From a virus: a stretch of 43,637 nt of DNA. The position numbers and the translations under genes are program-made. The notes beneath the pieces are model-generated. The model saw only the letters and a program-made list of their open reading frames with translations. It was not told where the DNA came from and made no database searches. The first letter of the stretch is position 1; every line of letters begins with the position of its first letter. Shown piece after piece: positions 925 to 21,120 of this stretch. The DNA is taken from the IMG/VR virus record IMGVR_UViG_3300019776_001116, positions 1 to 43,637 of that record; one strand, given 5' to 3'.

Positions 925-1299
925 CTATCTGAACTGATCAAAAAGTGCCCGCTGCTCGCTCCAGAGACTGGGAATGCGGTTGCGGATCAGCCAATGCGCT
1001 GTCAACCGTCTGGGTTGTTTGCCGGCCATCAGTTCTTCAATCAGGTCGGGAGCCAGTAGCCCCATCCGGACCAATCGGTTCACGGTCGATGGTGTGACGC
1101 CTTCAACTTTGGCAATGTCGGACCCGCTGGCGTATGCGCCGGTGTCGAGGAGCTCTTGCCAAAAGAATCCACGACCGACCACGTTGAGGATGTTGACGTC
1201 ATGAACAGGGGCACCGCTGTCCGCAATCAGCCTGCCTGCCCGCCGCTTCAAATTCAGTGGCACGAAGGTGCTCTGGTCTGTCGACTGAGTGGCTTTCAT
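925..1299 (-). CDS. Small HTH protein coupled to the serine recombinase
   Basis: 124 residues. ATG at 1299 is preceded by GGGAGG and overlaps the recombinase stop (ATGA), which implies translational coupling; an ATG four codons upstream is less likely. The core reads FFWQELLDTGAY, then an HTH-like segment (GSDIAKVEGVTPSTVNRLVR) and LAPDLIEELMAGKQPRRLTAH, ending in SLWSEQRALFDQF. The HTH resembles ParB/KorB-type helices that read DNA repeats. It shares its motif order with the next gene (437-916). Role inferred from context: an accessory DNA-binding factor for the recombinase, possibly setting integration versus excision. Confidence 0.8.
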   Translation of the reverse strand: MKATQSTDQSTFVPLNLKRRAGRLIADSGAPVHDVNILNVVGRGFFWQELLDTGAYASGSDIAKVEGVTPSTVNRLVRMGLLAPDLIEELMAGKQPRRLTAHWLIRNRIPSLWSEQRALFDQFR

Positions 1300-2666
1300 G
1301 TCGCCTCCCATTCGGCCAGTTCGGCACCGATGCTGTCCGGCGCGAATTCTTCAATCAGGTCCTTCCAGCCAACCTCTCGCCACTTCAGTTTCAGCCCACC
1401 AGACACGAGGTCCACGCGCTCGATCATCAAGTTCACGATGCGGTGCTGCTCAGCCGGGTAAAGCTGCTCCCAAACACTGCCCAGCTGACGCATGGCCATC
1501 ACTGCGATGTCCTCGCGCACGGCGGCACCATTTTCTTGAATGAACTGGCAGACGCCAGCTACCGATTCAGGGCTGGAGAGCACGTTCTTTATCTGGGCCA
1601 ATGTGGCGGCCTCGACCTCATCGGCCGGTAGGCGCGCGTAGGTCTTGCTGTCAGCACCGAACCTCGCCTCTGCTTTCGAGAAGTAGTAGCGGTACTTGCG
1701 ACCGTTTTTGTTGGAGTAGGTCGGGTACATCCGGTCCCCAGAAGGGGCATACAACAAGCCGCGCAGCAGGGCATCGGTTCGCGAGCGCGCTTTGGTTTCC
1801 ACCGAGCGCGTGTGCCCATCGCTGGCCAGGATTTCGTGGACTTGCCCCCACAGGCCGTGATCAATGATCGCGCTGTGGACGCCGGGGTGCCAGCTGCCCT
1901 TGTGGGAGATCTCTCCCAAGTAGAGCCGGTTGCGCAGCAGCTTGTACAGGTACTTTTTGTCGATGCGCGAACCGCTGTGCATCTGGCCGCTGCGCGTCAC
2001 CCATGCCTTGGTGGTAATTCCTTCCGCTGTCAAGTTGGCCGCGATTTGGGTGGTCGAACCGATCGTCAGCATTTCCTGGAAGATGCGCTGGACGATGGCG
2101 GCCTCGGCATCGTTGACGATGAGCTGCCGGTTCACGACGTCGTAACCCAGGGGCGGCACACCACCCATCCACATGCCCTTGCGCTTGGATGCCGCAATCT
2201 TGTCGCGGATGCGCTCACCCGTGACCTCGCGTTCGAACTGCGCGAACGACAACAGCACGTTCAGCATCAACCGCCCCATGGATGTGGTGGTGTTGAACTG
2301 CTGCGTGACCGAGACGAACGAGACCTTACGGCGCTCAAACACCTCGACCATCTTGGAGAAGTCCGCCAGGCTACGGGTCAGTCGGTCGATCTTGTAGACC
2401 ACCACTATGTCAATCAGGCCGCGTTCGATGTCGGCCATCAGGCGCTTCAGACCGGGGCGCTCGGTATTGCCACCTGAAAATCCAGGATCATCGTAATCAT
2501 CGGCCACCGGTATCCAGCCTTCTGCGCGTTGGCTGGCGATGTATGCATGTCCCGCCTCCCGCTGTGCATCGATGGAATTGAATTCCTGGTCCAGTCGCTC
2601 GTCGGTAGATACACGGCAATACACCGCGCATCGCTGGCGTGGCTTTTTGTTCGGGGTGTCGCTCAC
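1296..2666 (-). CDS. Large serine recombinase (site-specific integrase)
   Basis: 456 residues. The start is GTG at 2666, overlapping the stop of the upstream gene (GTGA), with GGAGGAG just upstream. The N-terminal resolvase catalytic domain (about 12-150) shows YCRVST with the nucleophile Ser20, DDPGFSGGN, and KIDRLTR with catalytic arginines 95 and 98. A recombinase domain with MGGVPPLGYD (about 170-280) follows. Then comes a region where the usual zinc ribbon would lie, but its Cys pairs are replaced (YAPSGDRMYPTYSNKNGRKY), followed by a helical C-terminus. Serine integrases cut both strands at a 2-base core through a 5'-phosphoserine link and recombine attP with attB. As the only integrase seen, it is the likely enzyme for insertion of this element. 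It is embedded in a five-gene minus-strand operon. Confidence 0.93.
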   Translation of the reverse strand: MSDTPNKKPRQRCAVYCRVSTDERLDQEFNSIDAQREAGHAYIASQRAEGWIPVADDYDDPGFSGGNTERPGLKRLMADIERGLIDIVVVYKIDRLTRSLADFSKMVEVFERRKVSFVSVTQQFNTTTSMGRLMLNVLLSFAQFEREVTGERIRDKIAASKRKGMWMGGVPPLGYDVVNRQLIVNDAEAAIVQRIFQEMLTIGSTTQIAANLTAEGITTKAWVTRSGQMHSGSRIDKKYLYKLLRNRLYLGEISHKGSWHPGVHSAIIDHGLWGQVHEILASDGHTRSVETKARSRTDALLRGLLYAPSGDRMYPTYSNKNGRKYRYYFSKAEARFGADSKTYARLPADEVEAATLAQIKNVLSSPESVAGVCQFIQENGAAVREDIAVMAMRQLGSVWEQLYPAEQHRIVNLMIERVDLVSGGLKLKWREVGWKDLIEEFAPDSIGAELAEWEAT

Positions 2667-3115
2667 TGGAACTCCTCCGCAGGACGGCGCAGGCCAAAAA
2701 ACAATGGTCCTGACCATGAGCTGCCAGAAATGTGGCGTGCCACTGCCGACAGGCTCTTGAAGTACTTGCCCTCGTATTCAAACGTTCCCTCGGCGGTCAC
2801 TTTCACATAGTGGTCACGCTCGGCCCATTCACGAACCAAGACCGTGCCGGGAGCCAGCGTGATCTCAGGTCCCTTGCGGCGGGTTTTGATCTTGGACTGC
2901 CGCACACCGATGTTGGCCAGGCGCCGGCGCGTATCCGGATCCAGTCCGCCAAAGGCTTCTTCCTGAAGCTTGTAAGCAATCCGGGACTCCAGGTAGACGC
3001 GGTTGGTCTTCTCCGGACGCGATTTGAAAAAGCGATCCCACAGAGCCCACAGGTCTGGCAGCGGGATCGATGGCAGGGAGGCCACTTGTTTGGCCACGGA
3101 TGATGTGTCGTTCAT
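2663..3115 (-). CDS. DUF2924-type protein
   Basis: 150 residues. It contains the block TLAPGTVLVREW, then FEYEGKYFKSLSAVARHISG and SSWSGPLFFGL, the hallmark of the DUF2924 family as I know it. The N-terminus is helical (LPDLWALWDRFF) and basic. DUF2924 proteins have no settled biochemical role but are usually encoded immediately upstream of a large serine recombinase, as here. The start ATG overlaps the stop of the gene before it (ATGA) and its own stop overlaps the recombinase GTG start, so all three are translationally coupled. The C-terminal part looks like a compact beta domain that could bind DNA. Family assignment is firm; function is unknown. Confidence 0.87.
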   Translation of the reverse strand: MNDTSSVAKQVASLPSIPLPDLWALWDRFFKSRPEKTNRVYLESRIAYKLQEEAFGGLDPDTRRRLANIGVRQSKIKTRRKGPEITLAPGTVLVREWAERDHYVKVTAEGTFEYEGKYFKSLSAVARHISGSSWSGPLFFGLRRPAEEFQ

Positions 3116-3309
3116 GACAACTCCTCTTGTTGAGACGGGGTTGTATGAACGCGCTGGTCGGGCACAAAGCCAAGGTGAACCGGGTTCTCTACTGGCTCAT
3201 TAGCCACATAGCTGCGGTTGATCGCCGTGGCAAGGATGGCGCAGATTTCCCTCGCCCTGGCGCAGGGGGACATCTCCGCGGGTGATAAGAGTTTGATGTG
3301 TTTTTGCAT
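3112..3309 (-). CDS. Small protein at the head of the recombinase operon
   Basis: About 65 residues from ATG 3309; a TTG seven codons upstream (3330) is an alternative. Neither start has a strong ribosome binding site. The sequence begins with LLSPAEMSPCARAREICAILATAI, resembling short proteins found ahead of DUF2924 genes in other mobile elements. Its stop overlaps the DUF2924 start (ATGA), which supports its being translated. No domain with a known function is seen. The 139 bases between it and the 750-residue gene upstream could hold the cassette's promoter, but no clear consensus was found. Confidence 0.6.
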   Translation of the reverse strand: MQKHIKLLSPAEMSPCARAREICAILATAINRSYVANEPVENPVHLGFVPDQRVHTTPSQQEELS

Positions 3310-3448: not shown

Positions 3449-5701
3449 TCACAGGCTTTCAACGAACTCGGAGACAGATGTCTCATCGGCCTCGTCGTCA
3501 ACGATCATCTCCATGCCTGGCATCCTGAGTTCCCAGGCCCGCGCGCCTTCAACGCGAACGATGTAATCGCGCCAAGGTGAGTTTTTGCCGGTGAACAGGT
3601 TGGATGGTGATTTGCAGCCAGTGCCATCCATCAGCATTTTTGAATTGACGTGGGGCGTACCTGCCGCATAGGCCGCAACCAAGCGTTGCAGCACAATGAT
3701 TTTGGCTTTGTTGGTCACTTTCCATGGGGCCTTACCTGGAATGGACAGAACTGCAGAGTAGCCATCAGAAGAAACCTTCAAGCTGACCGAGGTACCGCCC
3801 ATGGCAGCCAGCTGCCCATGTCGGTAGGCCACCTTCAATCGGTTCATATCGATAGCAGTTTCTTGCCCTGTGGTGGCTAGTACCTCATCGATCGCAATCA
3901 CCAAATTGGTGCCGGCAAATGGAAACGGTGCGGACGCTGTCGTCAACACAATGCCGGGGGCTGAGCGAGGATGAAGCCGCAAGGCGGCATCGACCTGTGC
4001 GAACTGGCGGTCATTGGACATCCTGGCGGCGAAGTACAGCGCGACTGCCTGGCCGTCAATATCCAGCTCACCCAGAAAAATGGGCTCATCCTCCTGGTGC
4101 TTGCCACGAACGCCCAACAGGCCCGTGCCCAGGGACGTGATGATTTCCTCTCGCAACCAGTTCAGATCCACTTTCCACAGGCGAGCGTGCTTGGCGGGCA
4201 ATGTCACATCGCTGCCGGTCAGCGGATCACGGTAACGAACGAAGTTCGGGTCGGTGCAGCGTTCCAGAACAACGGTGAATCGTTCCCCCTCAGCTACATC
4301 GATCACCTTCTGCGTAATTCGGTCTCCTTCGGTGATGATGCCCTCATCTTCGAACCGTTCGATGTCAATGTCCAAATGTGCCAAGGCGAAACCATCCATG
4401 GGGCTGGTCGCGCATTCAAGAAGTTTGGCGACTTGCCTGATGAGAGTTGGGTCATCAATGCCCGAGCCAGGATGCAAAGGCTTGAGGACGCCCAGCGCCT
4501 CGAGCAGTTGCGTTCCTGCATCTCGCAGCCGCCGGTCCTTCTCGCCCTGAAGGCTGCAGCGGCCAGGTTCCGCCACGACGATAGACAAAGGAGTTTCGGT
4601 GGTCTCGCCATCAAACACAAAGTCAGCGACCAGCGTGACGCCCAGAATGGCACCAGGTTGTGAAAACGGATGGGCGCTCCAACGCTGTGTAATGACATCG
4701 TGCAGCTCGACGCCGCTGTCGATATGTAGCGTGACGGCGTCAGTGGAGTGACCAATCAATGCCTTGGCCTCGGTCAGGTACAAGCGCTCGACTTTGACGC
4801 CGTCCAGTCGTGGCTTGGCATCCTTGAGCGGCAAGGCAAACCGGGACAGGTCATACCTGGAGCGGTTCAGTGGCCGGTTTGACAAGGGGGCCTTGAAGCC
4901 ATGCTTGGACAGCACATTGGCCAGCGGTGCCCGCGTTGACAGCGTGTGCGCATAGGCCTCGACGACTTTTCTATCTGGGTTGTAGACCAGCGTGGCATCG
5001 CGGGCAGGAAAGTAGCAAAAGGTCTTTCGGTTGCGATTCACCATCTGGACTGCAGTCACTTGGTCGCCGGCAAAACGAACCACCAGGTAGTGAATGGTCG
5101 AGGTGTCACCATTCCTTTTTTCGTCAGCCAGCGGGACGTAGACCACCTCACACGGTTCACTCAGGAGCATGGCGTGGGTCAGTTGGGTCTCCAGTTCTTT
5201 TCGGACCGTGTCGTTCCAGATGAAAGGCGGTGCCTCATCGCATGGGATATCAAAAGCGTCATAAAGGCGCTTGCTGCCCCGAATGTCGCCCGTGTTGAGG
5301 ATCGACTCGGCGACGTCAAATAGCCTCGCCGATTCATCGCAGTGGGTGCGCATCCAGACCGATCGGCCAATTTCGCCGCCGTCCTGCGCCTGGAATGTGG
5401 CGATCAGTTCGTTGTCATGGAGCTGTTCGGCAACAGTGGCGAGGATTTGCGCCCCACGCGGTGCCGCCAGACGCAGGACACGGAGTGCTTCGCGTTCTGC
5501 GGGGTCGCGCTGGTCTTTGCGTAGGTGTTTGATATGTTCGACCAGTGCAACGGAGAGCTGATCTTCATCTCGCGACCAATCGAAACCCCGGGCCAGGGCT
5601 TGGCATTCTTGAAGACCACTGAAGGCCTTGAGGGTTGGCACCGTTGCCAGTTCGGCGAGTTCCAGCAAGCAGTGCGCATTTGTCAGGGTCTTCTTGCCCA
5701 T
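3449..5701 (-). CDS. Unrecognised 750-residue protein linked to a PIN toxin module
   Basis: I do not recognise a family. A strong GGAGGAG lies 5 bases before ATG 5701, and only 18 bases separate it from the PIN gene, so it is very likely the third gene of that operon. Residues 1-170 appear helical. Residues about 180-450 look beta-rich, with segments such as EVVYVPLADEK and ILGVTLVADFVFDGE. Residues about 450-680 are mixed. The last 90 (KIIVLQRLVAAYAAG, then WRDYIVRVEGARAWELRM) may form a winged-helix-like end. No signal peptide, membrane segment or Walker motif is visible. By eye the gene is somewhat less GC-rich than the structural genes, consistent with separate acquisition. It is probably cargo (defence, exclusion or regulation) rather than a virion or replication gene; this is inference. 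Confidence 0.8.
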   Translation of the reverse strand: MGKKTLTNAHCLLELAELATVPTLKAFSGLQECQALARGFDWSRDEDQLSVALVEHIKHLRKDQRDPAEREALRVLRLAAPRGAQILATVAEQLHDNELIATFQAQDGGEIGRSVWMRTHCDESARLFDVAESILNTGDIRGSKRLYDAFDIPCDEAPPFIWNDTVRKELETQLTHAMLLSEPCEVVYVPLADEKRNGDTSTIHYLVVRFAGDQVTAVQMVNRNRKTFCYFPARDATLVYNPDRKVVEAYAHTLSTRAPLANVLSKHGFKAPLSNRPLNRSRYDLSRFALPLKDAKPRLDGVKVERLYLTEAKALIGHSTDAVTLHIDSGVELHDVITQRWSAHPFSQPGAILGVTLVADFVFDGETTETPLSIVVAEPGRCSLQGEKDRRLRDAGTQLLEALGVLKPLHPGSGIDDPTLIRQVAKLLECATSPMDGFALAHLDIDIERFEDEGIITEGDRITQKVIDVAEGERFTVVLERCTDPNFVRYRDPLTGSDVTLPAKHARLWKVDLNWLREEIITSLGTGLLGVRGKHQEDEPIFLGELDIDGQAVALYFAARMSNDRQFAQVDAALRLHPRSAPGIVLTTASAPFPFAGTNLVIAIDEVLATTGQETAIDMNRLKVAYRHGQLAAMGGTSVSLKVSSDGYSAVLSIPGKAPWKVTNKAKIIVLQRLVAAYAAGTPHVNSKMLMDGTGCKSPSNLFTGKNSPWRDYIVRVEGARAWELRMPGMEMIVDDEADETSVSEFVESL

Positions 5702-5719: not shown

Positions 5720-6292
5720 TTACATGGCCACGGTCCACTGGCGCATGACCGCCACTGATTGAGTCAATCCCTGCGCGAGCAGGGTGTCCAGGTATTCATC
5801 TGCTGTTTTCGGCGGGTTCTTCAGTGACCGCCGGTGGCTGGCTGCCGCCTCAAGGACGCTGGCCGGGTGCAGATCCAACAGGTCCACAATGAAGTCATCT
5901 GGATGTTGGGCGGCCAGGTTGTAGGGCTTGAGCGCGTCAGCCGGGAAATCCTTGAGGTTGAATGTCACGATCAGACTGGCCCCAGAGTGGATGGCGGCGG
6001 CCGCCACATGACGGTCATCCGGATCGGGCAGGTTGATTGATGGGATCAGGTACTCGAATCCGGCGACCAGACTGTCCCGGACGTGGGTGTTCATCAGCTG
6101 GCGTGTCCGCGTCAGCTGGTCTTGGGTCAAATCGGGGCGGATGGCCAGAACATTACGCGTCCACTCGTCGTGGATCATGTCGCTCCAGCGCGCCCGGTAC
6201 AGATCCGATAGCGCCAAATGCATCAGCAAATCGCGCAGCGGTGCCGGGTAGAGCACGCAGGCGTCATAGACGACGGTGAAGTGCGAACTCAT
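5720..6292 (-). CDS. PIN-domain protein, VapC-like toxin candidate
   Basis: 190 residues from ATG 6292, which follows the upstream stop by 4 bases. The N-terminus FTVVYDACVLYPAPLRDLL carries the first PIN acidic residue (Asp10). A HDEWTRNVL helix supplies a conserved acidic residue, and LPDPDDRHVAAAA supplies the later acidic cluster, followed by the core strand SLIVTFNLKDFP. PIN domains are Mg-dependent endoribonucleases, and many are type II toxins. This longer class is commonly paired with an upstream HTH antitoxin, exactly the arrangement here. The C-terminal 50 residues form an extra helical tail beyond the minimal VapC size. RNA target unknown. Confidence 0.87.
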   Translation of the reverse strand: MSSHFTVVYDACVLYPAPLRDLLMHLALSDLYRARWSDMIHDEWTRNVLAIRPDLTQDQLTRTRQLMNTHVRDSLVAGFEYLIPSINLPDPDDRHVAAAAIHSGASLIVTFNLKDFPADALKPYNLAAQHPDDFIVDLLDLHPASVLEAAASHRRSLKNPPKTADEYLDTLLAQGLTQSVAVMRQWTVAM

Positions 6293-6296
6293 CCGT

Positions 6297-6758
6297 TCAG
6301 TACCCCATGTTGAGTTCCTGGGCCTGCGCGGCCAGCTCATCCAGCGCTTTGCGACGCTCGGCATCGATGCGCTTCTTGTAGGCAATCACATCCTGATAGC
6401 GAACTCGACGGTGCGTACCGATCTTGTGAAATGGCATCTCTCCCTTCTCCACCAACTGAACGAGGAAAGGCCGGGAGACGTTGAGCACGTCGGCCGCCTC
6501 TTGGGTCGTCAGTTCAGCGTGGATCGGGATGATCGACACCGCGTTGCCTTGACCGATCTCGGTCAAGACTTCCAGGAGTAGCCGAAGCGCGGAGGTCGGT
6601 ATCCGAACCGCGCGCACAGCACCTTTTTCATCATGGAAGTCGATCTGCTGAACCTCGGACCGTGTCTGGAGCACGGTCGACAACGCCCGACCAGACTCTC
6701 TGGCGAGCGCGATGTCCTCTTCGGAGGGCAGGGTTTTGGGGATGGCGGGAGCGTTCAT
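6297..6758 (-). CDS. HTH antitoxin-like protein (excisionase-type fold)
   Basis: 153 residues. ATG 6758 is chosen for its GAGGAG ribosome binding site; an upstream start at 6788 has none. The middle contains LTTQEAADVLNVSRPFLVQLVEKGEMPFHKIGTHRRVR, a MerR/excisionase-like winged HTH of the kind found in antitoxins of PIN toxins. N-terminal residues 1-80 are helical and may contact the toxin or dimerise. It is the first gene of the HTH-PIN-750-residue operon and probably represses its own promoter at 6798-6825, as is usual for type II antitoxins. It could alternatively be a phage excisionase, but the 4-base spacing to the PIN gene argues for antitoxin. Confidence 0.87.
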   Translation of the reverse strand: MNAPAIPKTLPSEEDIALARESGRALSTVLQTRSEVQQIDFHDEKGAVRAVRIPTSALRLLLEVLTEIGQGNAVSIIPIHAELTTQEAADVLNVSRPFLVQLVEKGEMPFHKIGTHRRVRYQDVIAYKKRIDAERRKALDELAAQAQELNMGY

Positions 6759-7262: not shown

Positions 7263-7739
7263 ATGACTGATCTGACCGTCTTCCCCGCCGACATCGCCGA
7301 GATGTCGATTGCCCAACTGGCCAGCCTGCCTGCCCAGCAACTTTACGAAATCGATACCAACCTCGACCAGGCCATCGCCTGGCTCAAGAGTGCACGCACC
7401 AAGGTGGATACCGCCCTGGAGCAGCGCGTCGGTGCCCAAGGCCGTGAAGCCCTGCGTGACACGGGACGCGATTTCGGCACCGCTCACCTCAAGGCCGATG
7501 GTCTGCACGTGAAGTTCGAGTTGCCCAAGAAAGTGTCCTGGGACCAGAAAAAGCTCAAGGTCATCGCCGAACGCATCGTCGCCTCGGGCGAAGCCGTCGA
7601 GAGCTACCTCGACGTGAAGTTGGCGGTACCCGAGTCCCGTTACACCAACTGGCCACCGACCCTGCAGCAGCAGTTCGCCGATGCCCGCACGGTGGAGGCT
7701 GGCAAGCCAACCTTCACCCTTTCCTTCGATTCGGAGTAA
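7263..7739 (+). CDS. Conserved early phage protein of unknown function
   Basis: 158 residues. ATG 7263 has GAGGAGG 5 bases upstream, overlapping the previous stop. The N-terminal half is helical (SIAQLASLPAQQLYEIDTNL) and probably coiled. The C-terminal half has charged and beta-like segments (ADGLHVKFELPKKVSWDQKK). No catalytic motif, signal peptide or zinc site is visible. Its stop overlaps the next start (TAATG), so it is translationally coupled to the Bro-N gene. Position among replication and recombination genes suggests a DNA-metabolism accessory role; this is inference only. Confidence 0.78.
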   Translation: MTDLTVFPADIAEMSIAQLASLPAQQLYEIDTNLDQAIAWLKSARTKVDTALEQRVGAQGREALRDTGRDFGTAHLKADGLHVKFELPKKVSWDQKKLKVIAERIVASGEAVESYLDVKLAVPESRYTNWPPTLQQQFADARTVEAGKPTFTLSFDSE

Positions 7740-15337: not shown

Positions 15338-16762
15338 ATGACGCCAACTCTGCAGATCGAATACCGCCCGATCGATGCGCTGCTGCCTTACGCTCGCAAT
15401 CCGCGCACGCATTCGCCGGCGCAGATCGCCAAGATCGCGGCAAGCATCGTCGAGTTCGGCTGGACCCAGCCCATCCTGGTCGATGGCGGCAACGGCATCA
15501 TCGCAGGTCATGGTCGCCTGGCGGCGGCGCGCAAGTTGGAACTGACCGAAGTCCCGGTCATTGAACTGCGCCACCTGAGCCCGGCGCAGAAACGCGCCTA
15601 CGTGATCGCCGATAACCGTTTGGCCTTGGATGCCGGATGGGACGATGAGCTGTTGGCGCTGGAACTCTCGGAGCTGTCCGAGGCGGGCTACGACCTGCAG
15701 CTCACGGGTTTCGACAATGACGAGCTGACCAAGATGCTGGCTGATCTTGGTGACGGTGATGGGCAAGCGTCAGAGCAGGAGGCGGATCCGGAAGCAGGCG
15801 ATGAGGTCCCGGAGCCGCCCAAGCAGCCGATCTGCCGCCTTGGCGATGTCTGGCAGCTGGGGGCGCACCGGCTGATTTGTGGAGACGCGTCCGATCCGGC
15901 GGCCATCGCCACCCTGATGCAGGGCGAGCAGGCGAGCCTGTGCTTCACCTCGCCGCCCTACGGCAACCAGCGCGACTACACCTCCGGTGGTATTGCCGAC
16001 TGGGATGGCCTGATGCGCGGCGTGTTTGCGCAGGTGCCCATGGCTCCCGATGGTCAGGTGCTGGTCAACCTCGGATTGATCCACCGCGACAACGAGTTCA
16101 TTCCGTATTGGGATGCTTGGCTTGGCTGGATGCGATCCCAAGGCTGGCGGCGCTTTGCCTGGTACGTCTGGGATCAGGGGCCGGGTATGCCCGGCGACTG
16201 GCAAGGACGCTTGGCACCGAGTTTTGAATTCATCTTTCACTTCAACCGCCAGACCCGAAAGCCGAACAAGACGGTGCCCTGCAAGTTTGCCGGCCAGGAA
16301 ACCCATCTGCGCGCCGACGGTTCCTCGACTGCCATGCGCGGCAAGGACGGCCAGGTCAACGGTTGGACTGCAGCAGGTCAGCCGACACAGGACCACCGCA
16401 TCCCCGACTCGGTGATCCGGGTCATGCGCCACAAGGGAAAGATCGGCAAGGACATCGATCACCCCGCGGTTTTCCCAGTCACGCTGCCGGTGGAGGTGAT
16501 CAAGGCCTACACGGACGAAGGCGAAATCATCTTCGAACCCTTTGGCGGCAGCGGCACCACGCTGATGGCCACGCAGCGCACCGGCCGCATTGGTCGTGCG
16601 GTCGAGATTGCGCCCGAGTACGTCGATGTGGCGCTGATCCGTTTCCAACAGAACTTCCCCGGCGTGCCGGTCACTCTGGCAGCCACCGGTGAGCCCTATG
16701 AGGTCGTTGCCCAGCAACGCAAAGCCGAGCGCCGGCAAGAGAGCGAACATGCAACTGTCTGA
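15338..16762 (+). CDS. ParB-domain DNA methyltransferase (SPPY type)
   Basis: 474 residues. Residues 1-90 form a ParB/Srx-like domain with LPYARNPRTHS, GIIAGHGRLAAARKL and AYVIADNRLA. The methyltransferase part starts near 165 (LGDVWQLGAHRLICGDA), has the catalytic motif TSPPYGNQ (SPPY at 205-208) and the AdoMet loop EPFGGSGTT (about 400-408) in the C-terminal half, a beta-class order. SPPY is usual for N4-cytosine methylation, although adenine cannot be excluded. Likely role: methylating phage DNA to evade host restriction. No ribosome binding site is visible in the 8 bases between the terminator and ATG. It overlaps the endolysin by 14 bases. Confidence 0.92.
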   Translation: MTPTLQIEYRPIDALLPYARNPRTHSPAQIAKIAASIVEFGWTQPILVDGGNGIIAGHGRLAAARKLELTEVPVIELRHLSPAQKRAYVIADNRLALDAGWDDELLALELSELSEAGYDLQLTGFDNDELTKMLADLGDGDGQASEQEADPEAGDEVPEPPKQPICRLGDVWQLGAHRLICGDASDPAAIATLMQGEQASLCFTSPPYGNQRDYTSGGIADWDGLMRGVFAQVPMAPDGQVLVNLGLIHRDNEFIPYWDAWLGWMRSQGWRRFAWYVWDQGPGMPGDWQGRLAPSFEFIFHFNRQTRKPNKTVPCKFAGQETHLRADGSSTAMRGKDGQVNGWTAAGQPTQDHRIPDSVIRVMRHKGKIGKDIDHPAVFPVTLPVEVIKAYTDEGEIIFEPFGGSGTTLMATQRTGRIGRAVEIAPEYVDVALIRFQQNFPGVPVTLAATGEPYEVVAQQRKAERRQESEHATV

Positions 16763-17198
16763 ACATTTCGAACTATCCGAGTTTCTGGTCTCGGAGACGG
16801 CGGCTCGCCGTGGCATTGCCAACGAACCCACGCCCGAAGTCATCGAAAACCTGCGTCGGCTGTGTCAGCTGGTGCTGCAGCCTTTGCGCGTCAAGCTCAG
16901 CCGCCCGGTGGTCATCACGTCTGGGTACCGCTCGCCGGCGCTCAACCGTGCCGTCGGTGGCAGCAAAACCAGCCACCACATGCAGGGGCGCGCCGCCGAT
17001 CTCATCGTGCCGGGGCTGTCGCCGCTGGCGGTCTGTCAGACCGCGCAGCAGTTGAAGCTGCCCTGCGTCCAGATCATTCATGAGTTCGGGCGCTGGGCGC
17101 ATCTGGCGGTGGCCCTCCCCAACGAACGCACCCAATTGCTGACCGCCAAGCTGGCGCAGGGCAAGACGGTCTATGAGCCGGGGTTGGTCCATGTCTGA
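16749..17198 (+). CDS. Peptidase M15 endolysin
   Basis: 149 residues from ATG 16749. The zinc-binding motif SxHxxGxAxD is present as SHHMQGRAAD (Ser75, His77, Gly80, Asp84), and the later HEFGRWAHLAV supplies His118, as in the D-Ala-D-Ala carboxypeptidase / M15_3 family of phage endolysins. LSEFLVSETAARRGI and VITSGYRSPALNRAVGG are typical of the family. It would cut the peptide stems of peptidoglycan at lysis. There is no signal peptide, so a holin is needed; one lies at 43209-43637. The gene sits between and overlaps two methyltransferase genes rather than beside the holin, an unusual split. Confidence 0.92.
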   Translation: MQLSEHFELSEFLVSETAARRGIANEPTPEVIENLRRLCQLVLQPLRVKLSRPVVITSGYRSPALNRAVGGSKTSHHMQGRAADLIVPGLSPLAVCQTAQQLKLPCVQIIHEFGRWAHLAVALPNERTQLLTAKLAQGKTVYEPGLVHV

Positions 17199-18483
17199 AC
17201 CCTGGCTCTCCACCCATATCGAACGCTGGCCCACGGCCAAGCTGGTGCCCTATGCCCGCAATGCCCGAACCCACTCGGAGGAGCAGGTGGCGCAGATCGC
17301 CGCCTCCATCGTCGAGTTCGGTTTCACCAACCCGATCCTGGCCGGCTCCGACGGCGTGATCGTTGCCGGTCACGGTCGCTTGGCCGCCGCCCAGAAGCTG
17401 GGCCTGGACACGGTGCCCGTGGTCGTCCTCGATCACCTGACGCCCACCCAGCGCCGGGCATTGATCATTGCGGACAACCGGATTGCCGAGAACGCCGGCT
17501 GGGACGATGCCATGCTGCGGATCGAACTGCAGTCGCTGCAGGAAGATGGCTTCAACCTGGACATTACCGGCTTTGATGCCGATGCCCTGGCAGAAATCAT
17601 GGCCGGTGAGGAGACCACGGTCGATGGCCAGACCGACGACGATGCGGTGCCTGAGGTGCCGGTCACGCCGATTTCCCGTCCAGGGGATATCTGGGAGCTT
17701 GGGAACCACCGCCTGCTGTGTGGCGACGCCACCGACCCGGCAAGCTACGAAGCGCTGATGGCCGATGGCCAGGCCGACATGGTGTTCACCGATCCACCTT
17801 ACAACGTGGACTACGCGAATAGCGCCAAGGACAAGATGCGCGGCAAGGACCGCCCGATCCTGAACGACAACCTGGGCGACGGGTTCTACGATTTCCTGTT
17901 GGCGGCAATGACCCCTATGTTGGAGCGCTGCACCGGCGCCACCTACATCGCCATGTCGTCCAGCGAGCTGGACACGCTGCAGCAAGCCTTTCGGGCCGCT
18001 GGCGGCAAATGGTCGACCTTCATCATCTGGGCCAAGAACACCTTCACGCTCGGCCGCGCCGACTACCAGCGCCAGTACGAGCCCATCCTATATGGTTGGC
18101 CCGAGGGGCAAAACCGCCACTGGTGCGGTGACCGCGATCAGGGCGATGTCTGGAACATCAAAAAGCCGCAGAAGAACGATCTGCACCCGACCATGAAACC
18201 GGTGGAGCTGGTCGAGCGGGCCATCCGCAATTCCAGCCGACCGGGTGACATCGTGCTCGACCCTTTCGGTGGCTCTGGCACCACTCTCATCGCCGCAGAA
18301 AAGTCCGGCCGCGTCGGTTGGCTGATCGAACTCGACCCCAAGTACGTGGACGTGATCGTGCGCCGTTGGCAGGACTGGAGTGGGCAGGAGGCTTACCGGG
18401 AAGCCGACGCGGTCAAGTTCAATGACCTCGCGGCACTGGCAGGCATGGCGACCCCAGCAGATTCAGCGCAGGCCGACGTATGA
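17191..18483 (+). CDS. ParB-domain DNA methyltransferase (DPPY, N6-adenine type)
   Basis: 430 residues from ATG 17191, overlapping the endolysin stop by 8 bases; ATG 17173 is a possible alternative. ParB-like domain at about 10-100 (LVPYARNARTHSEEQ, GVIVAGHGRLAAAQKL). The methyltransferase has FTDPPYNV (DPPY 201-204), typical of N6-adenine enzymes, and LDPFGGSGTTLIAAEKS near 355-370. It shares its domain plan and many motifs with the enzyme encoded at 15338-16762, so the two are probably ancient duplicates with different base specificity. It likely protects phage DNA from restriction or affects expression. Confidence 0.93.
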   Translation: MSEPWLSTHIERWPTAKLVPYARNARTHSEEQVAQIAASIVEFGFTNPILAGSDGVIVAGHGRLAAAQKLGLDTVPVVVLDHLTPTQRRALIIADNRIAENAGWDDAMLRIELQSLQEDGFNLDITGFDADALAEIMAGEETTVDGQTDDDAVPEVPVTPISRPGDIWELGNHRLLCGDATDPASYEALMADGQADMVFTDPPYNVDYANSAKDKMRGKDRPILNDNLGDGFYDFLLAAMTPMLERCTGATYIAMSSSELDTLQQAFRAAGGKWSTFIIWAKNTFTLGRADYQRQYEPILYGWPEGQNRHWCGDRDQGDVWNIKKPQKNDLHPTMKPVELVERAIRNSSRPGDIVLDPFGGSGTTLIAAEKSGRVGWLIELDPKYVDVIVRRWQDWSGQEAYREADAVKFNDLAALAGMATPADSAQADV

Positions 18484-18743
18484 AACAGTCGCGCCTGATG
18501 TCCTTGGTGGAGTCGCTTGCCAATGTGCTGGTCGGGTATGGCGTGGCGGTGGCCACGCAGATAGCGGTCTTCCCGTTGTTCGGTCTGGCCGTGACCGTTG
18601 CCGAGAATCTGTTGATTGGCCTGATCTTCACGGCTGTGTCGATCGTGCGCAGTTACGCGCTGCGCCGGAGTTTTGAAGCCCTGCGTTGCGTCAGTCGGCC
18701 ATGGCCTCTTCGACGATCTCGCAGTGAATCACGAACCCGGTGA
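18480..18743 (+). CDS. Small membrane protein (DUF7220-like)
   Basis: 87 residues. ATG 18480 overlaps the methyltransferase stop (ATGA). Two hydrophobic segments are seen: ANVLVGYGVAVATQIAVF (about 14-31) and ENLLIGLIFTAVSIV (about 42-56), followed by RSYALRRSFEALR. This matches a small phage family I recall as DUF7220 (from memory). The C-terminal 20 residues are basic and overlap the end of the convergent gene at 18691-19065, so the true product may have a junk-like tail. Role unknown; it may assist lysis or superinfection exclusion. Confidence 0.82.
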   Translation: MKQSRLMSLVESLANVLVGYGVAVATQIAVFPLFGLAVTVAENLLIGLIFTAVSIVRSYALRRSFEALRCVSRPWPLRRSRSESRTR

Positions 18744-19065
18744 GGTAAGGCAGCCCCTTGGGGATGCCGTACTGCCTGCTGGTCTGACGCCCGATGGTCC
18801 AGTCCATCCAGCGTTGGGTGGCGGCGTGGATCGCATCCTTCAGGTTGGCGCCTGCGTGCAGTTCGTTCAGGACGTCGTCGGCAAAGTGACGACCGTGGCG
18901 GCTGTCGAGGAAGGTGCGGACCGATTCGAGGGGCTGGTCGGTGGCGTCTGAGATCGCGGTCATCGCGATCGGCCAGACGGCTTCCGCCCGTTCATTCATC
19001 GATCCCCAAAAGCCCCAGGCTTCGTTCATGGAGGCGGGGATCTGTGCTTGCTGGGTGGCGGTCAT
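18691..19065 (-). CDS. Small accessory protein, leader repeat R1
   Basis: 124 residues. ATG 19065 is chosen because GGAG lies 7 bases upstream; the upstream codons belong to leader repeat R1. The protein contains ASMNEAWGFWGSMNERAEAV and LDSRHGRHFADDVLNELHAG, then a conserved-looking TGFVIHCEIVEEAMAD end. No catalytic motif is recognised. It converges with the membrane protein gene and overlaps its 3' end by 53 bases. It is the last of six codirectional minus-strand genes that look like a non-structural accessory island, perhaps counter-defence; this is inference. Confidence 0.77.
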   Translation of the reverse strand: MTATQQAQIPASMNEAWGFWGSMNERAEAVWPIAMTAISDATDQPLESVRTFLDSRHGRHFADDVLNELHAGANLKDAIHAATQRWMDWTIGRQTSRQYGIPKGLPYLTGFVIHCEIVEEAMAD

Positions 19066-19084: not shown

Positions 19085-19132
19085 TTGGCGATGACTCCAT
19101 TGACGCGCTGTTCGATTTGAAAGCCAAGGCTT
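19085..19132 (-). repeat. Leader repeat R1
   Basis: 48 bases identical to repeat R2 (19443-19490) at 44 positions. Read on the minus strand it contains TTGGCT, 17 bases, GTCAAT, and ends 20 bases before the ATG of the gene at 18691-19065. It may be a promoter or a regulatory leader. Confidence 0.8.
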
Positions 19133-19157
19133 TCTCGATCATTCTTGGAGGCCGTGA

Positions 19158-19421
19158 TCATTTCGCGACGCTGGCCAATTCGGCCTGGGCGTTGGCAATC
19201 AGGTCCAGGCGCAGGTTGGGCGTGATATTGCAGGCCAGGGCGTTGAGCGCCCAGTTCATCACTTGCGATTTATCCCGGGGCGTCTCGGCGGTATCGAGCC
19301 GCTCGATGTAGTGGTCTAGATCCCGTAGGCTGCGCTCCAGGGTGGAGCGGGCGGTCAGCAAGGCATCTTTGGCCTTTTGTTCGGTCATTTGGCGCATCAG
19401 GGTATCAAGGTCGAGTGTCAT
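19158..19421 (-). CDS. Small helical protein, leader repeat R2
   Basis: 87 residues. ATG 19421 has CGGAGCC 6 bases upstream. The sequence is helical and charged (MRQMTEQKAKDALLTARSTLERSLRDLDHYIERL), probably a coiled coil, followed by MNWALNALACNITPNLRLDLI. No family is recognised. It is preceded by repeat R2 and followed by repeat R1, so it seems to be a separate transcription or translation unit in the accessory island. Confidence 0.72.
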   Translation of the reverse strand: MTLDLDTLMRQMTEQKAKDALLTARSTLERSLRDLDHYIERLDTAETPRDKSQVMNWALNALACNITPNLRLDLIANAQAELASVAK

Positions 19422-19442
19422 GGTGGGGCTCCGTTCAATCGT

Positions 19443-19490
19443 TTGGCGATGACCCCATTGACGCGCTGTTCGATTGAGAAGCCAAGGCTT
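19443..19490 (-). repeat. Leader repeat R2
   Basis: Near-identical copy of R1, located 22 bases before the ATG of the gene at 19158-19421. It keeps TTGGCT, a 17-base spacer and GTCAAT on the minus strand, and the near-palindrome AAGCC-TT-GGCTT. Confidence 0.8.
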
Positions 19491-19526
19491 CAACAGAAGA
19501 AGATGCAGAGCGTGGCGGCAGAGCCA

Positions 19527-19886
19527 CTACCCCAGACGGGCTGCGTAGCGCGCATAGTCCCCGCCAGACGGGTCGACGTACAGATAAGGGCGACCGGGGG
19601 CGTAGACTTCCAGGCACAGGCGCCCCTGGCCCACATACCCGCCTTTGCCAGCCAGCCAGTCGCGCGAGGCCAGCAAGTTGGCGGCGAAGCCATCGAATTC
19701 TTCGGGCGTCATGGTCCGGGTCTCGGTGACGTAGACCACGTAGTCGCCGCTGGCGCTCATGTCCTTCAAGTCCGCTGGCTTGCGTGCAAACGGCAGCCGG
19801 ATGCCGAGTTGTTCGACCTGAATCTCCTGGCCCTCCCACTGGAGGGTCATGGGCGTGCGTTCAATGGTGATGGACATGCTGGGCAT
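19527..19886 (-). CDS. Small accessory protein, unknown
   Basis: 119 residues from ATG 19886, with AAAGGAT upstream. Strand-rich in appearance: MSITIERTPMTLQWEGQEIQ, SGDYVVYVTETRTM and GRLCLEVYAPGRPYLYVDPSG. No domain is recognised. It overlaps the upstream gene by 26 bases, so both are probably translated from one mRNA. Compact beta proteins of this size are frequent among phage anti-restriction or anti-CRISPR genes, but there is no direct evidence for that here. Confidence 0.74.
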   Translation of the reverse strand: MPSMSITIERTPMTLQWEGQEIQVEQLGIRLPFARKPADLKDMSASGDYVVYVTETRTMTPEEFDGFAANLLASRDWLAGKGGYVGQGRLCLEVYAPGRPYLYVDPSGGDYARYAARLG

Positions 19887-20205
19887 GGTGATCCTTTCTG
19901 GTTTTTGAAGTGCTGTACTTGGGGTGCTTGGCGGTGGTCTGCAAGGCTTCCACCCCAGCCAAGGCCAAGGTGAGCACAGCGTTGTGAAACGCCGCCTCTG
20001 TCAAACAGGGTGCCAGGCAGGCGTCTTCCAGCAGGCTGTCGATGGCCGGTGCCACCTTGGCGCGCATCGCGGCATGCACCGCATGCTGGAGCGCCGGGCT
20101 GGCGGTTTTGATTTCGGGGCAGAGGCTGATCAGGGTGCGAAACGCCTGGTCGGCCAGGCGCTGCCCCAACTCGTCGATGCGTTGTAAGTTGGGCCGGGCG
20201 TTCAT
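19861..20205 (-). CDS. Small helical accessory protein
   Basis: 114 residues. ATG 20205 overlaps the upstream stop (ATGA). It is mostly helical (LQRIDELGQRLADQAFRTLI, LQHAVHAAMRAKVAPAIDSLL), ending in a His-rich tail HHAQHVHHH that may be a by-product of overlapping the next gene. No family is recognised. Translationally coupled to the DUF3489-type gene, so it may be its partner. Confidence 0.72.
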   Translation of the reverse strand: MNARPNLQRIDELGQRLADQAFRTLISLCPEIKTASPALQHAVHAAMRAKVAPAIDSLLEDACLAPCLTEAAFHNAVLTLALAGVEALQTTAKHPKYSTSKTRKDHHAQHVHHH

Positions 20206-20750
20206 GCGACATCCCCATCGGTAGAGACGGGATCAATGCGGTACACCCGCTGACCACCAGACTCCTTGCTGGAGTGGATGGTCAGGCCCAGGCGCTTCTT
20301 GAGCGTGCCGGCCAAGGTACCTCTCACGGTGTGCTGTTGCCATTGAGTGGCTTCCATGATCTGCGCGATCGTGGCGCCCTCGGGTCGCTGCAGCAGACCG
20401 ATCACCAGGGCTTGCTTGCTGTCGGCCCGCGTGCGAACCGGTTTGTGCTGGATGGGTGTCTGCCAACTGGCCTCGGCCTTGGTGACATCGGCTTCCAGTT
20501 CCGGATCGTCCAGTGTGATGGTCGGTGGCAAGGCGCCCGGTCGGGGCAGGCCCAGGGCGTCGTAGCCCTCGGCAGCGACCACCCAGTCATCGCCGTCGGG
20601 CGTGATCAGGGCGCGTTTGAACAGGCCTTCGAGCACCTTGGCGCGGGCACCGCCCTTGATGTGCTCGGGGAACCAGGCGATCTTGCCGGCGCTGTCCTGA
20701 ACGGCGTGCGCCAGGATGGCCTGCTGGTTGGGGTTGAGTGTGGTGGCCAT
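20202..20750 (-). CDS. DUF3489-type protein
   Basis: 182 residues. The C-terminal domain has KQALVIGLLQRPEGATIAQI, then MEATQWQQHTVRGTLAGTLKKRLGLTI and a GGQRVYRID end, the pattern I know as DUF3489, a winged-helix-like DNA-binding fold. The N-terminal part contains LNPNQQAILAHAVQDSAGKI and a linker. Genes of this family occur in prophages and mobile elements, often near DUF2924/recombinase cassettes; here it lies 17 kb away from that cassette. It probably regulates transcription of the island or phage. It follows the gene at 20758 by 7 bases. Confidence 0.85.
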   Translation of the reverse strand: MATTLNPNQQAILAHAVQDSAGKIAWFPEHIKGGARAKVLEGLFKRALITPDGDDWVVAAEGYDALGLPRPGALPPTITLDDPELEADVTKAEASWQTPIQHKPVRTRADSKQALVIGLLQRPEGATIAQIMEATQWQQHTVRGTLAGTLKKRLGLTIHSSKESGGQRVYRIDPVSTDGDVA

Positions 20751-20757
20751 GGCTGCC

Positions 20758-21042
20758 TCAGGCTTGAAGGGCGGTGGCGCTGCCGTTGGTGGGGTGGTTT
20801 CCGTTGGCCTTGCGGCTGCGATTCACCGGCTGCTTGGGCGTGCCTCCTGCCGCCCGCAGGCCTGCGTCAAACGCGGCTTGCAAGGCGCTCTTGACGCCCC
20901 AGACGCTGACATCGTGAAAGTCCAGGCTGTCGCGGTGGCGGGTTTGCAGGGTTTCGATGAACAGATGGTCCATGGCAATCGATTCGAACAACAGTTCGAT
21001 CTCGTCGGGGGAGAGTGCGGTGGGGGGCGTCTTCTTGGCCAT
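20758..21042 (-). CDS. DUF6900-type small protein, first gene of the island
   Basis: 94 residues. ATG 21042 is chosen for AAGGAG 8 bases upstream. Core LSPDEIELLFESIAMDHLFI, ETLQTRHRDSLDFHDVSVWG and VKSALQAAFDAGLRAAGG match a family I recall as DUF6900 (from memory), found in plasmids and phages. The C-terminus is basic and disordered. It is the first gene of the minus-strand accessory operon, which is driven from the divergent region holding repeat R3. Function unknown. Confidence 0.8.
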   Translation of the reverse strand: MAKKTPPTALSPDEIELLFESIAMDHLFIETLQTRHRDSLDFHDVSVWGVKSALQAAFDAGLRAAGGTPKQPVNRSRKANGNHPTNGSATALQA

Positions 21043-21072
21043 TGGGGGGCTCCTTGGTGGTGGGTTGCTTGT

Positions 21073-21120
21073 CAATCGACATCCGCATTCACGCGCTGTG
21101 CGCCACAGAAGCCAAGCTCT
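21073..21120 (-). repeat. Leader repeat R3 (diverged)
   Basis: Aligns without gaps to R2 at 31 of 48 positions, including CACGCGCTGT and AGAAGCCAAG. The minus strand keeps TTGGCT, 17 bases, GTGAAT. It precedes the first gene of the accessory operon by about 30 bases. The rest of the 21043-21201 gap has no gene. Confidence 0.65.

What the first reader, a model, noticed from the sequence alone, without database searches (positions are those of the whole stretch)
19085..21120. Three copies of a 48-bp leader in front of separate accessory genes
R1 and R2 match at 44 of 48 positions; R3 matches R2 at 31 of 48. Each sits 20-30 bases before an ATG with a GGAG site, and each has TTGGCT, exactly 17 bases, then GTCAAT or GTGAAT, plus an AAGCC/GGCTT symmetry. 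This looks like a reusable expression module that marks genes for joint control, much as anti-defence genes can share a regulator. It might also be a recombination hot spot for gene swapping. The sigma70 match is poor (3 of 6 in each box), so an activator or alternative sigma may be needed.
Basis: partly seen in the sequence, partly recalled or inferred. Interest (0 to 1): 0.65.

Follow-up and report, generated by a model that had tools for sequence, protein, structure and literature searches.

The report
Shared promoter-like leader of prophage genes
A family of bacterial viruses puts the same rigid 30-base promoter-like DNA element in front of many unrelated genes, including the gene pair that probably integrates the virus, which suggests one shared switch for a whole set of prophage genes in which each gene carries its own copy.

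Summary
The window has four copies, all on the minus strand, not three: 19099-19128, 19457-19486, 21087-21116 and 3145-3174. The fourth precedes a DUF2924 gene and a serine recombinase. The core is CTTGGCTTY-N11-AGCGCGT(T/S)(C/A)AT, a rigid 30 bp. It occurs in hundreds of phages and prophages of Beta- and Gammaproteobacteria, including phage AcaML1, and in diverged form upstream of alphaproteobacterial DUF2924 operons. It precedes at least 19 unrelated gene families, with the start codon usually 28-46 nt downstream. All 79 DUF3489 loci and 78 of 80 DUF2924 loci fetched by protein homology carry it.

Its bases are conserved even at synonymous sites where it overlaps a reading frame. No conserved RNA fold was found. 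Its 17-bp box spacing, A/T-rich upstream flank and pyrimidine-purine-pyrimidine motif at the expected start point fit a promoter. The -10-like box (GTTCAT) lacks the sigma70 -11A, so a further factor is probably needed; the two-domain winged-helix protein DUF3489 is the best candidate, by inference only.

The 'reusable expression module' reading is supported; the recombination hot-spot reading has no positive evidence. The nearest published parallel is the promoter-bearing ESAS repeats of Cluster K mycobacteriophages. I found no published description of this element.

The parts
19099..19128 (-). leader core R1: CTTGGCTTTCAAATCGAACAGCGCGTCAAT; predicted start of transcription about 19092
   Evidence: start point inferred from the family logo
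19457..19486 (-). leader core R2: CTTGGCTTCTCAATCGAACAGCGCGTCAAT; predicted start of transcription about 19450
21087..21116 (-). leader core R3: CTTGGCTTCTGTGGCGCACAGCGCGTGAAT; predicted start of transcription about 21080
18691..19065 (-). gene A behind R1 (phrog_8020, unknown function); start codon 33 nt after the core
19158..19421 (-). gene B behind R2 (87 aa, unknown; sub-threshold ZapC_N match); start codon 35 nt after the core
20758..21042 (-). gene F behind R3 (DUF6900, PF21841); start codon 44 nt after the core
20202..20750 (-). gene E (DUF3489, PF11994), 7 nt downstream of F, no leader of its own here; two winged helix-turn-helix domains; candidate regulator of the leaders
   Evidence: its homologues often carry their own leader
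19861..20205 (-). gene D (phrog_36268, unknown), overlaps E; no leader of its own
19527..19886 (-). gene C (unknown), overlaps D, no leader here; likely relatives elsewhere carry one
2663..3115 (-). DUF2924 gene (PF11149) behind R4; start codon 29 nt after the core
1296..2717 (-). serine recombinase / phage integrase downstream of DUF2924, in the R4 transcription unit

Best explanation
The leaders are copies of one promoter-type control element that defines a regulon of AcaML1-like temperate phages. CTTGGCTT acts as the -35 side (TTGGCT, ancestrally probably TTGACT). AGCGCGT(T/S)(C/A)AT holds the -10 side (GTTCAT-like) after exactly 17 bp. Transcription starts about 7 bp further on, giving 5' leaders of roughly 20-40 nt. 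Each copy drives one gene or a short operon: DUF2924 plus recombinase, DUF6900-DUF3489 and so on, B, A. The -10 lacks the sigma70 -11A, so RNA polymerase probably needs a further factor at the conserved AGCGC stretch, most likely a phage product. The two-domain winged-helix protein DUF3489, often encoded behind a leader itself, is the leading candidate, as activator or as autoregulatory repressor. Shown: recurrence, rigidity, position, conservation at base level, absence of a conserved RNA fold. Inferred: that it is a promoter, the start point, and the identity of the factor.
For: Rigid spacing of 11 in 177 of 177 box pairs in homology-fetched loci. Start codons mostly 28-46 nt downstream, before at least 19 unrelated gene families. 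79 of 79 DUF3489 loci carry it, with none in 771 kb of reversed sequence; 78 of 80 DUF2924 loci carry it. In the small frame upstream of DUF2924 most box codons show almost no synonymous variation (0-0.1 bit against 0.4-1.3 in most flanking codons), so selection acts on bases. Pyrimidine-purine-pyrimidine at +6 to +8 after the -10 (Y 0.93, R 0.72, Y 0.91) and A/T at -40/-41 (0.82-0.84) fit promoter geometry. In some Alphaproteobacteria, where DUF3489 lies directly before DUF2924, the diverged element sits further upstream, so it tracks the operon start. No other sigma70-type site in the block. Leader co-occurs with DUF3489 (Fisher p 8e-17) and DUF2924 (1.5e-24) in 250 Burkholderiales genomes. 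DUF3489 is predicted as two winged-helix domains with MarR/ArsR-type best, but weak, fold matches.
Against: No transcription data were available. The -10 is not sigma70-like and I could not match it to any sigma class I know. No trans factor is universal: 8 of 27 leader-positive Burkholderiales genomes lack DUF3489 and 3 lack both DUF3489 and DUF2924, although drafts and decayed prophages may explain some. In L448 the DUF499-associated copy lies about 200 nt before the likely first gene.
Confidence: 0.66

Rival explanations
1. The element is an operator only: a phage DNA-binding protein occupies both boxes to repress or activate, and the host promoter is elsewhere or degenerate.
For: Two conserved boxes with a fixed gap suit a two-domain or dimeric binder; in R1, R2 and some relatives CTTGGCTT is part of a longer palindrome; DUF3489 has two winged-helix domains.
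Against: 17-bp hexamer spacing, the start-point motif at the right distance and the A/T-rich -40 region fit a promoter; no alternative promoter found nearby; the family consensus is not palindromic.
Confidence: 0.18
2. It acts in the mRNA: a hairpin between GTTCAT and the start codon, a leader peptide (LGFxxEQRVH), or a start-associated translational signal.
For: The start codon is predicted to be more paired than after shuffling the leader, and the frame LGFxxxQRVH is open in many copies.
Against: Swapping leaders between other genes gives the same pairing (0.543 against 0.526, p 0.57), so that effect comes from the constant CAT; the small DUF2924 subset alone gave p 0.045. RNAalifold finds no conserved fold. 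Many copies have a stop just before the LGF codons or inside the frame. Synonymous sites are frozen.
Confidence: 0.08
3. It is a recombination site or hot spot, for example a target of the adjacent serine recombinase, used to exchange accessory genes.
For: Gene sets behind the leaders are mosaic, and the element travels with DUF2924 and usually a serine recombinase.
Against: Orientation and distance to the start codon are fixed, which a recombination site does not need; no prophage end was traced to a leader; the 11-bp spacer varies freely whereas homologous exchange would favour longer identity.
Confidence: 0.06
4. Coincidental similarity of three intergenic sequences by recent duplication, with no function.
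For: R1 and R2 are close enough to be a recent duplication.
Against: The same core is conserved at under 75 percent flanking identity in 160 representatives and across proteobacterial classes.
Confidence: 0.01

Closest known systems
Extended Start-Associated Sequences (ESAS) of Cluster K mycobacteriophages (PMC3203893, PMC11373665)
   Same: Short repeated element in one orientation before many unrelated non-structural genes; in Adephagia read as 46-47 bp with -35/-10 hexamers 17-18 bp apart, with low lysogenic expression of some downstream genes; RNA hairpin judged unlikely.
   Different: Different sequence and hosts; ESAS hexamers are SigA-like and include a 15-17 bp inverted repeat with variable spacer, and an SAS lies 3-9 nt from the start codon. 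The present element has a rigid non-palindromic core, no SAS, a non-sigma70 -10, and spans several proteobacterial classes.
Phage-specific promoter sets (T7 class, T4 middle and late, P2 late; from general knowledge)
   Same: One consensus repeated before the transcription units of a regulon.
   Different: Here no phage polymerase, sigma or coactivator is identified, and copies sit before the integrase and small accessory genes.
Morons (autonomously transcribed cargo genes of prophages; criteria in PMC5567305)
   Same: Small accessory genes, variable between relatives, each with its own promoter-like leader.
   Different: Morons have individual sigma70 promoters and terminators; here one shared element is used, the integrase unit has it too, and no terminator was found on the coding strand of the block.

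Membership tests
sigma70-type promoter | -35 TTGACA-like hexamer | tested here: met
   TTGGCT 4 of 6; TTGACT in several alphaproteobacterial copies
sigma70-type promoter | 16-18 bp spacer | tested here: met
   17 bp in practically all copies
sigma70-type promoter | -10 TATAAT-like hexamer with A at -11 | tested here: not met
   GTTCAT, GTCAAT or GTGAAT; T at the -11 position in 160 of 160; note that the search pattern itself required this T
sigma70-type promoter | transcription start 6-8 bp after the -10 | tested here: inconclusive
   YRY motif at the right place in the logo; no RNA data
Cluster K ESAS | 17-bp imperfect inverted repeats with variable spacer, linked to a 13-bp SAS next to the start codon | tested here: not met
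   core is non-palindromic and rigid; no comparable element beside the start codon
Cluster K ESAS (as an analogue) | repeated before many unrelated non-structural genes in one orientation | tested here: met
cis-regulatory RNA family (Rfam) | match to a curated model, or conserved base pairs | tested here: not met
   no Rfam match at the leaders in the window or in eight leader loci; no consensus fold
serine recombinase attachment site | crossover at prophage ends | not tested
   prophage junctions were not resolved

The most novel reading that the evidence does not exclude
A transmissible transcription specificity system: a phage-encoded two-domain winged-helix protein (DUF3489) redirects host RNA polymerase to a dedicated non-sigma70 promoter, so any gene that acquires the 30-bp element joins the prophage regulon in hosts from several bacterial classes.
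Probability: 0.22. Interest if true: 0.85.

Novelty: new variant of a known kind. Interest (0 to 1): 0.62.

Why it matters
It defines a regulon, readable from sequence alone, that links the integrase unit to dozens of unknown accessory genes in a very widespread prophage family. It gives a functional handle on DUF2924, DUF3489 and DUF6900; the searches here found almost no literature on the first two. If the factor is phage-encoded, it is a portable promoter system that would explain how new cargo genes are wired into a prophage by one short sequence.

Tried and rejected
RNA hairpin hiding the start codon: strong against shuffles, but it vanished for non-DUF2924 genes when leaders were swapped between genes; a first version of the swap test had an indexing error and was discarded. 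A first nr-set script used a wrong pattern and was discarded. Leader peptide LGFxxEQRVH: stops precede or interrupt it in many copies, and codons are frozen at synonymous sites. Known RNA family: none. Heat-shock, flagellar, sigma54 and ECF sigma consensus: compared by eye from general knowledge, none fits both boxes and spacing. Defence or anti-defence genes behind the leaders: no PADLOC match. Leader as attachment site: no positive evidence; junctions not resolved.

Full report
The window is a 43,637-base virus record with a gene layout like Acidithiobacillus phage AcaML1: DUF2924 and serine recombinase at the left, primase and two ParB/methylase fusions, a block of small minus-strand genes, then the region that holds terminase and structural genes in AcaML1. 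The finding lies in the minus-strand block.

Observation. The three repeats are real, and all read on the minus strand. The core is CTTGGCTT-N11-AGCGCGTSAAT; the start codons of genes A, B and F lie 33, 35 and 44 nt after it. Allowing three mismatches, the window has four matches against 0.07 expected. The fourth, at 3145-3174, lies 29 nt before a DUF2924 gene that is followed by a serine recombinase. With a weight matrix trained on 160 diverse copies the four score 34-42 and nothing else in the window exceeds 1.4.

Distribution. Relatives fetched by homology to gene B and to DUF3489 carry the leaders at the same places. In these loci the distance between the boxes is 11 in 177 of 177 cases. 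In 27 genomes the pattern occurs 1 to 11 times and the pattern read backwards never. Copies cluster in segments of roughly 15-25 kb together with DUF3489 and DUF2924. In 250 Burkholderiales genomes 27 have the pattern, no control hits occur, and presence is tied to DUF3489 and DUF2924. Loci chosen only by protein similarity agree: 79 of 79 DUF3489 loci and 78 of 80 DUF2924 loci have a leader.

What it precedes. Grouping the first gene behind each leader gave 19 clusters with two or more members (DUF6900, DUF2924, DUF3489, phrog_8020, gene B and gene C types, a helix-turn-helix gene and others) plus 20 singletons, some of which are spurious. The start codon is usually 28-46 nt after the core. 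The order and choice of genes vary between phages, often with a leader before each gene. In the window the leaders stand only where genes are separated, and the overlapping or abutting genes E, D and C have none.

Level of action. The reading frame through the core gives LGFxxxQRVH, and upstream of DUF2924 this is the end of a small open reading frame. There, codons inside the boxes show almost no synonymous variation (CTT, GGC, CAG, CGC, GTT, CAT) while most neighbouring codons of the same frame vary at synonymous sites, so the bases are what is conserved. Part of this is by construction, because the pattern used to find the leader fixes several of these bases; but 78 of 80 unselected loci pass it. 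Elsewhere stops stand directly before or inside the frame. No Rfam family matches the leaders and no consensus fold exists. The start codon looked hidden by the leader in a shuffle test, but leaders of other genes do it equally well for all but the small DUF2924 subset, so I reject an evolved hairpin. DNA is the likely target.

Geometry. TTGGCT and GTTCAT/GTCAAT/GTGAAT are 17 bp apart. In the non-redundant logo a pyrimidine-purine-pyrimidine motif stands 6-8 positions after the second hexamer, and two positions at -40/-41 are 82-84 percent A/T. This is what a promoter would show. The second hexamer, however, has T at the place of the essential -11A of sigma70 promoters, and the GC-rich stretch just upstream of it is as conserved as the hexamer. 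No sigma70-type site was found in the block. I infer a promoter that needs a further factor.

Alphaproteobacteria. DUF2924 operons there have a diverged element of the same length, CT(T/G)GACTT-N11-AAGC(A/G)TTCAT-like, about 60-80 nt before DUF2924; in several operons where DUF3489 directly precedes DUF2924 it lies further upstream. Burkholderiales genomes with DUF3489 but without the exact core have intermediate forms such as CTTGATTGATTCCGGCAATGAAGCGTTCAT. The element therefore tracks the start of the operon rather than one gene, and probably predates the split of these phage lineages. The weight matrix for these forms was trained on the loci themselves, so this part is weaker than the rest.

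Factor. DUF3489 is predicted as two winged-helix domains joined by a flexible linker (mean pLDDT 86), with MarR- and ArsR-type DNA-binding regulators as best but weak fold matches (E 0.005 and worse). It is often encoded behind its own leader. It is a reasonable candidate, but 8 of 27 leader-positive Burkholderiales genomes lack it, so recognition by a host factor remains possible.

Comparison. The nearest published case is the ESAS of Cluster K mycobacteriophages (PMC3203893), later read as repeated promoters with 17-18 bp spacing (PMC11373665). It works like that but is not a member: sequence, hosts, rigidity, lack of inverted repeats and lack of an SAS differ. Full-text searches for DUF2924, DUF3489 and the core sequence found no description of this element; subscription journals and preprints were not covered.

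Noticed in passing
window 3112-3309 (-): Small open reading frame ending in HLGFVPDQRVHTTPSQQEELS whose stop overlaps the DUF2924 start (TCATGA); a similar small frame stands upstream of DUF2924 in most relatives, and its C-terminus is dictated by the leader DNA.
   Followed up: partly
L446, L447, L448 (genomes G005, G019, G001): Further leader copies stand upstream of a large ATPase-like gene (DUF499-like by eye), in L448 with a ribbon-helix-helix-like gene about 200 nt away between them; they lie roughly 35-40 kb from the other leaders and may be cargo of the same elements.
   Followed up: partly
L444:5358-5649 (-), L644:5651 (+): Leader before a small HTH_17-type gene in other elements, in L444 near the recombinase end; possible excisionase or regulator under the same leader.
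   Followed up: partly
L002 (AcaML1) about 5612-5641, 6290-6319, 7422-7451: AcaML1 has three leaders; one lies inside annotated Gp33 (terminase small subunit) and one inside the annotated N-terminus of Gp30, which suggests misannotated starts and a missed small gene.
   Followed up: no
window 15338-16762 and 17173-18483: Two consecutive genes each join a ParB_N domain to an N6/N4 DNA methylase.
   Followed up: no
window 3449-5701 (-): 750-aa protein of unknown function with no Pfam match and a weak phrog_37634 match; large for a gene beside the integrase module.
   Followed up: no
L444:7747-8135 (-): tmRNA gene about 3.3 kb beyond the recombinase in the Limnohabitans sp. Bal53 prophage region; a possible integration site, not tested.
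   Followed up: no
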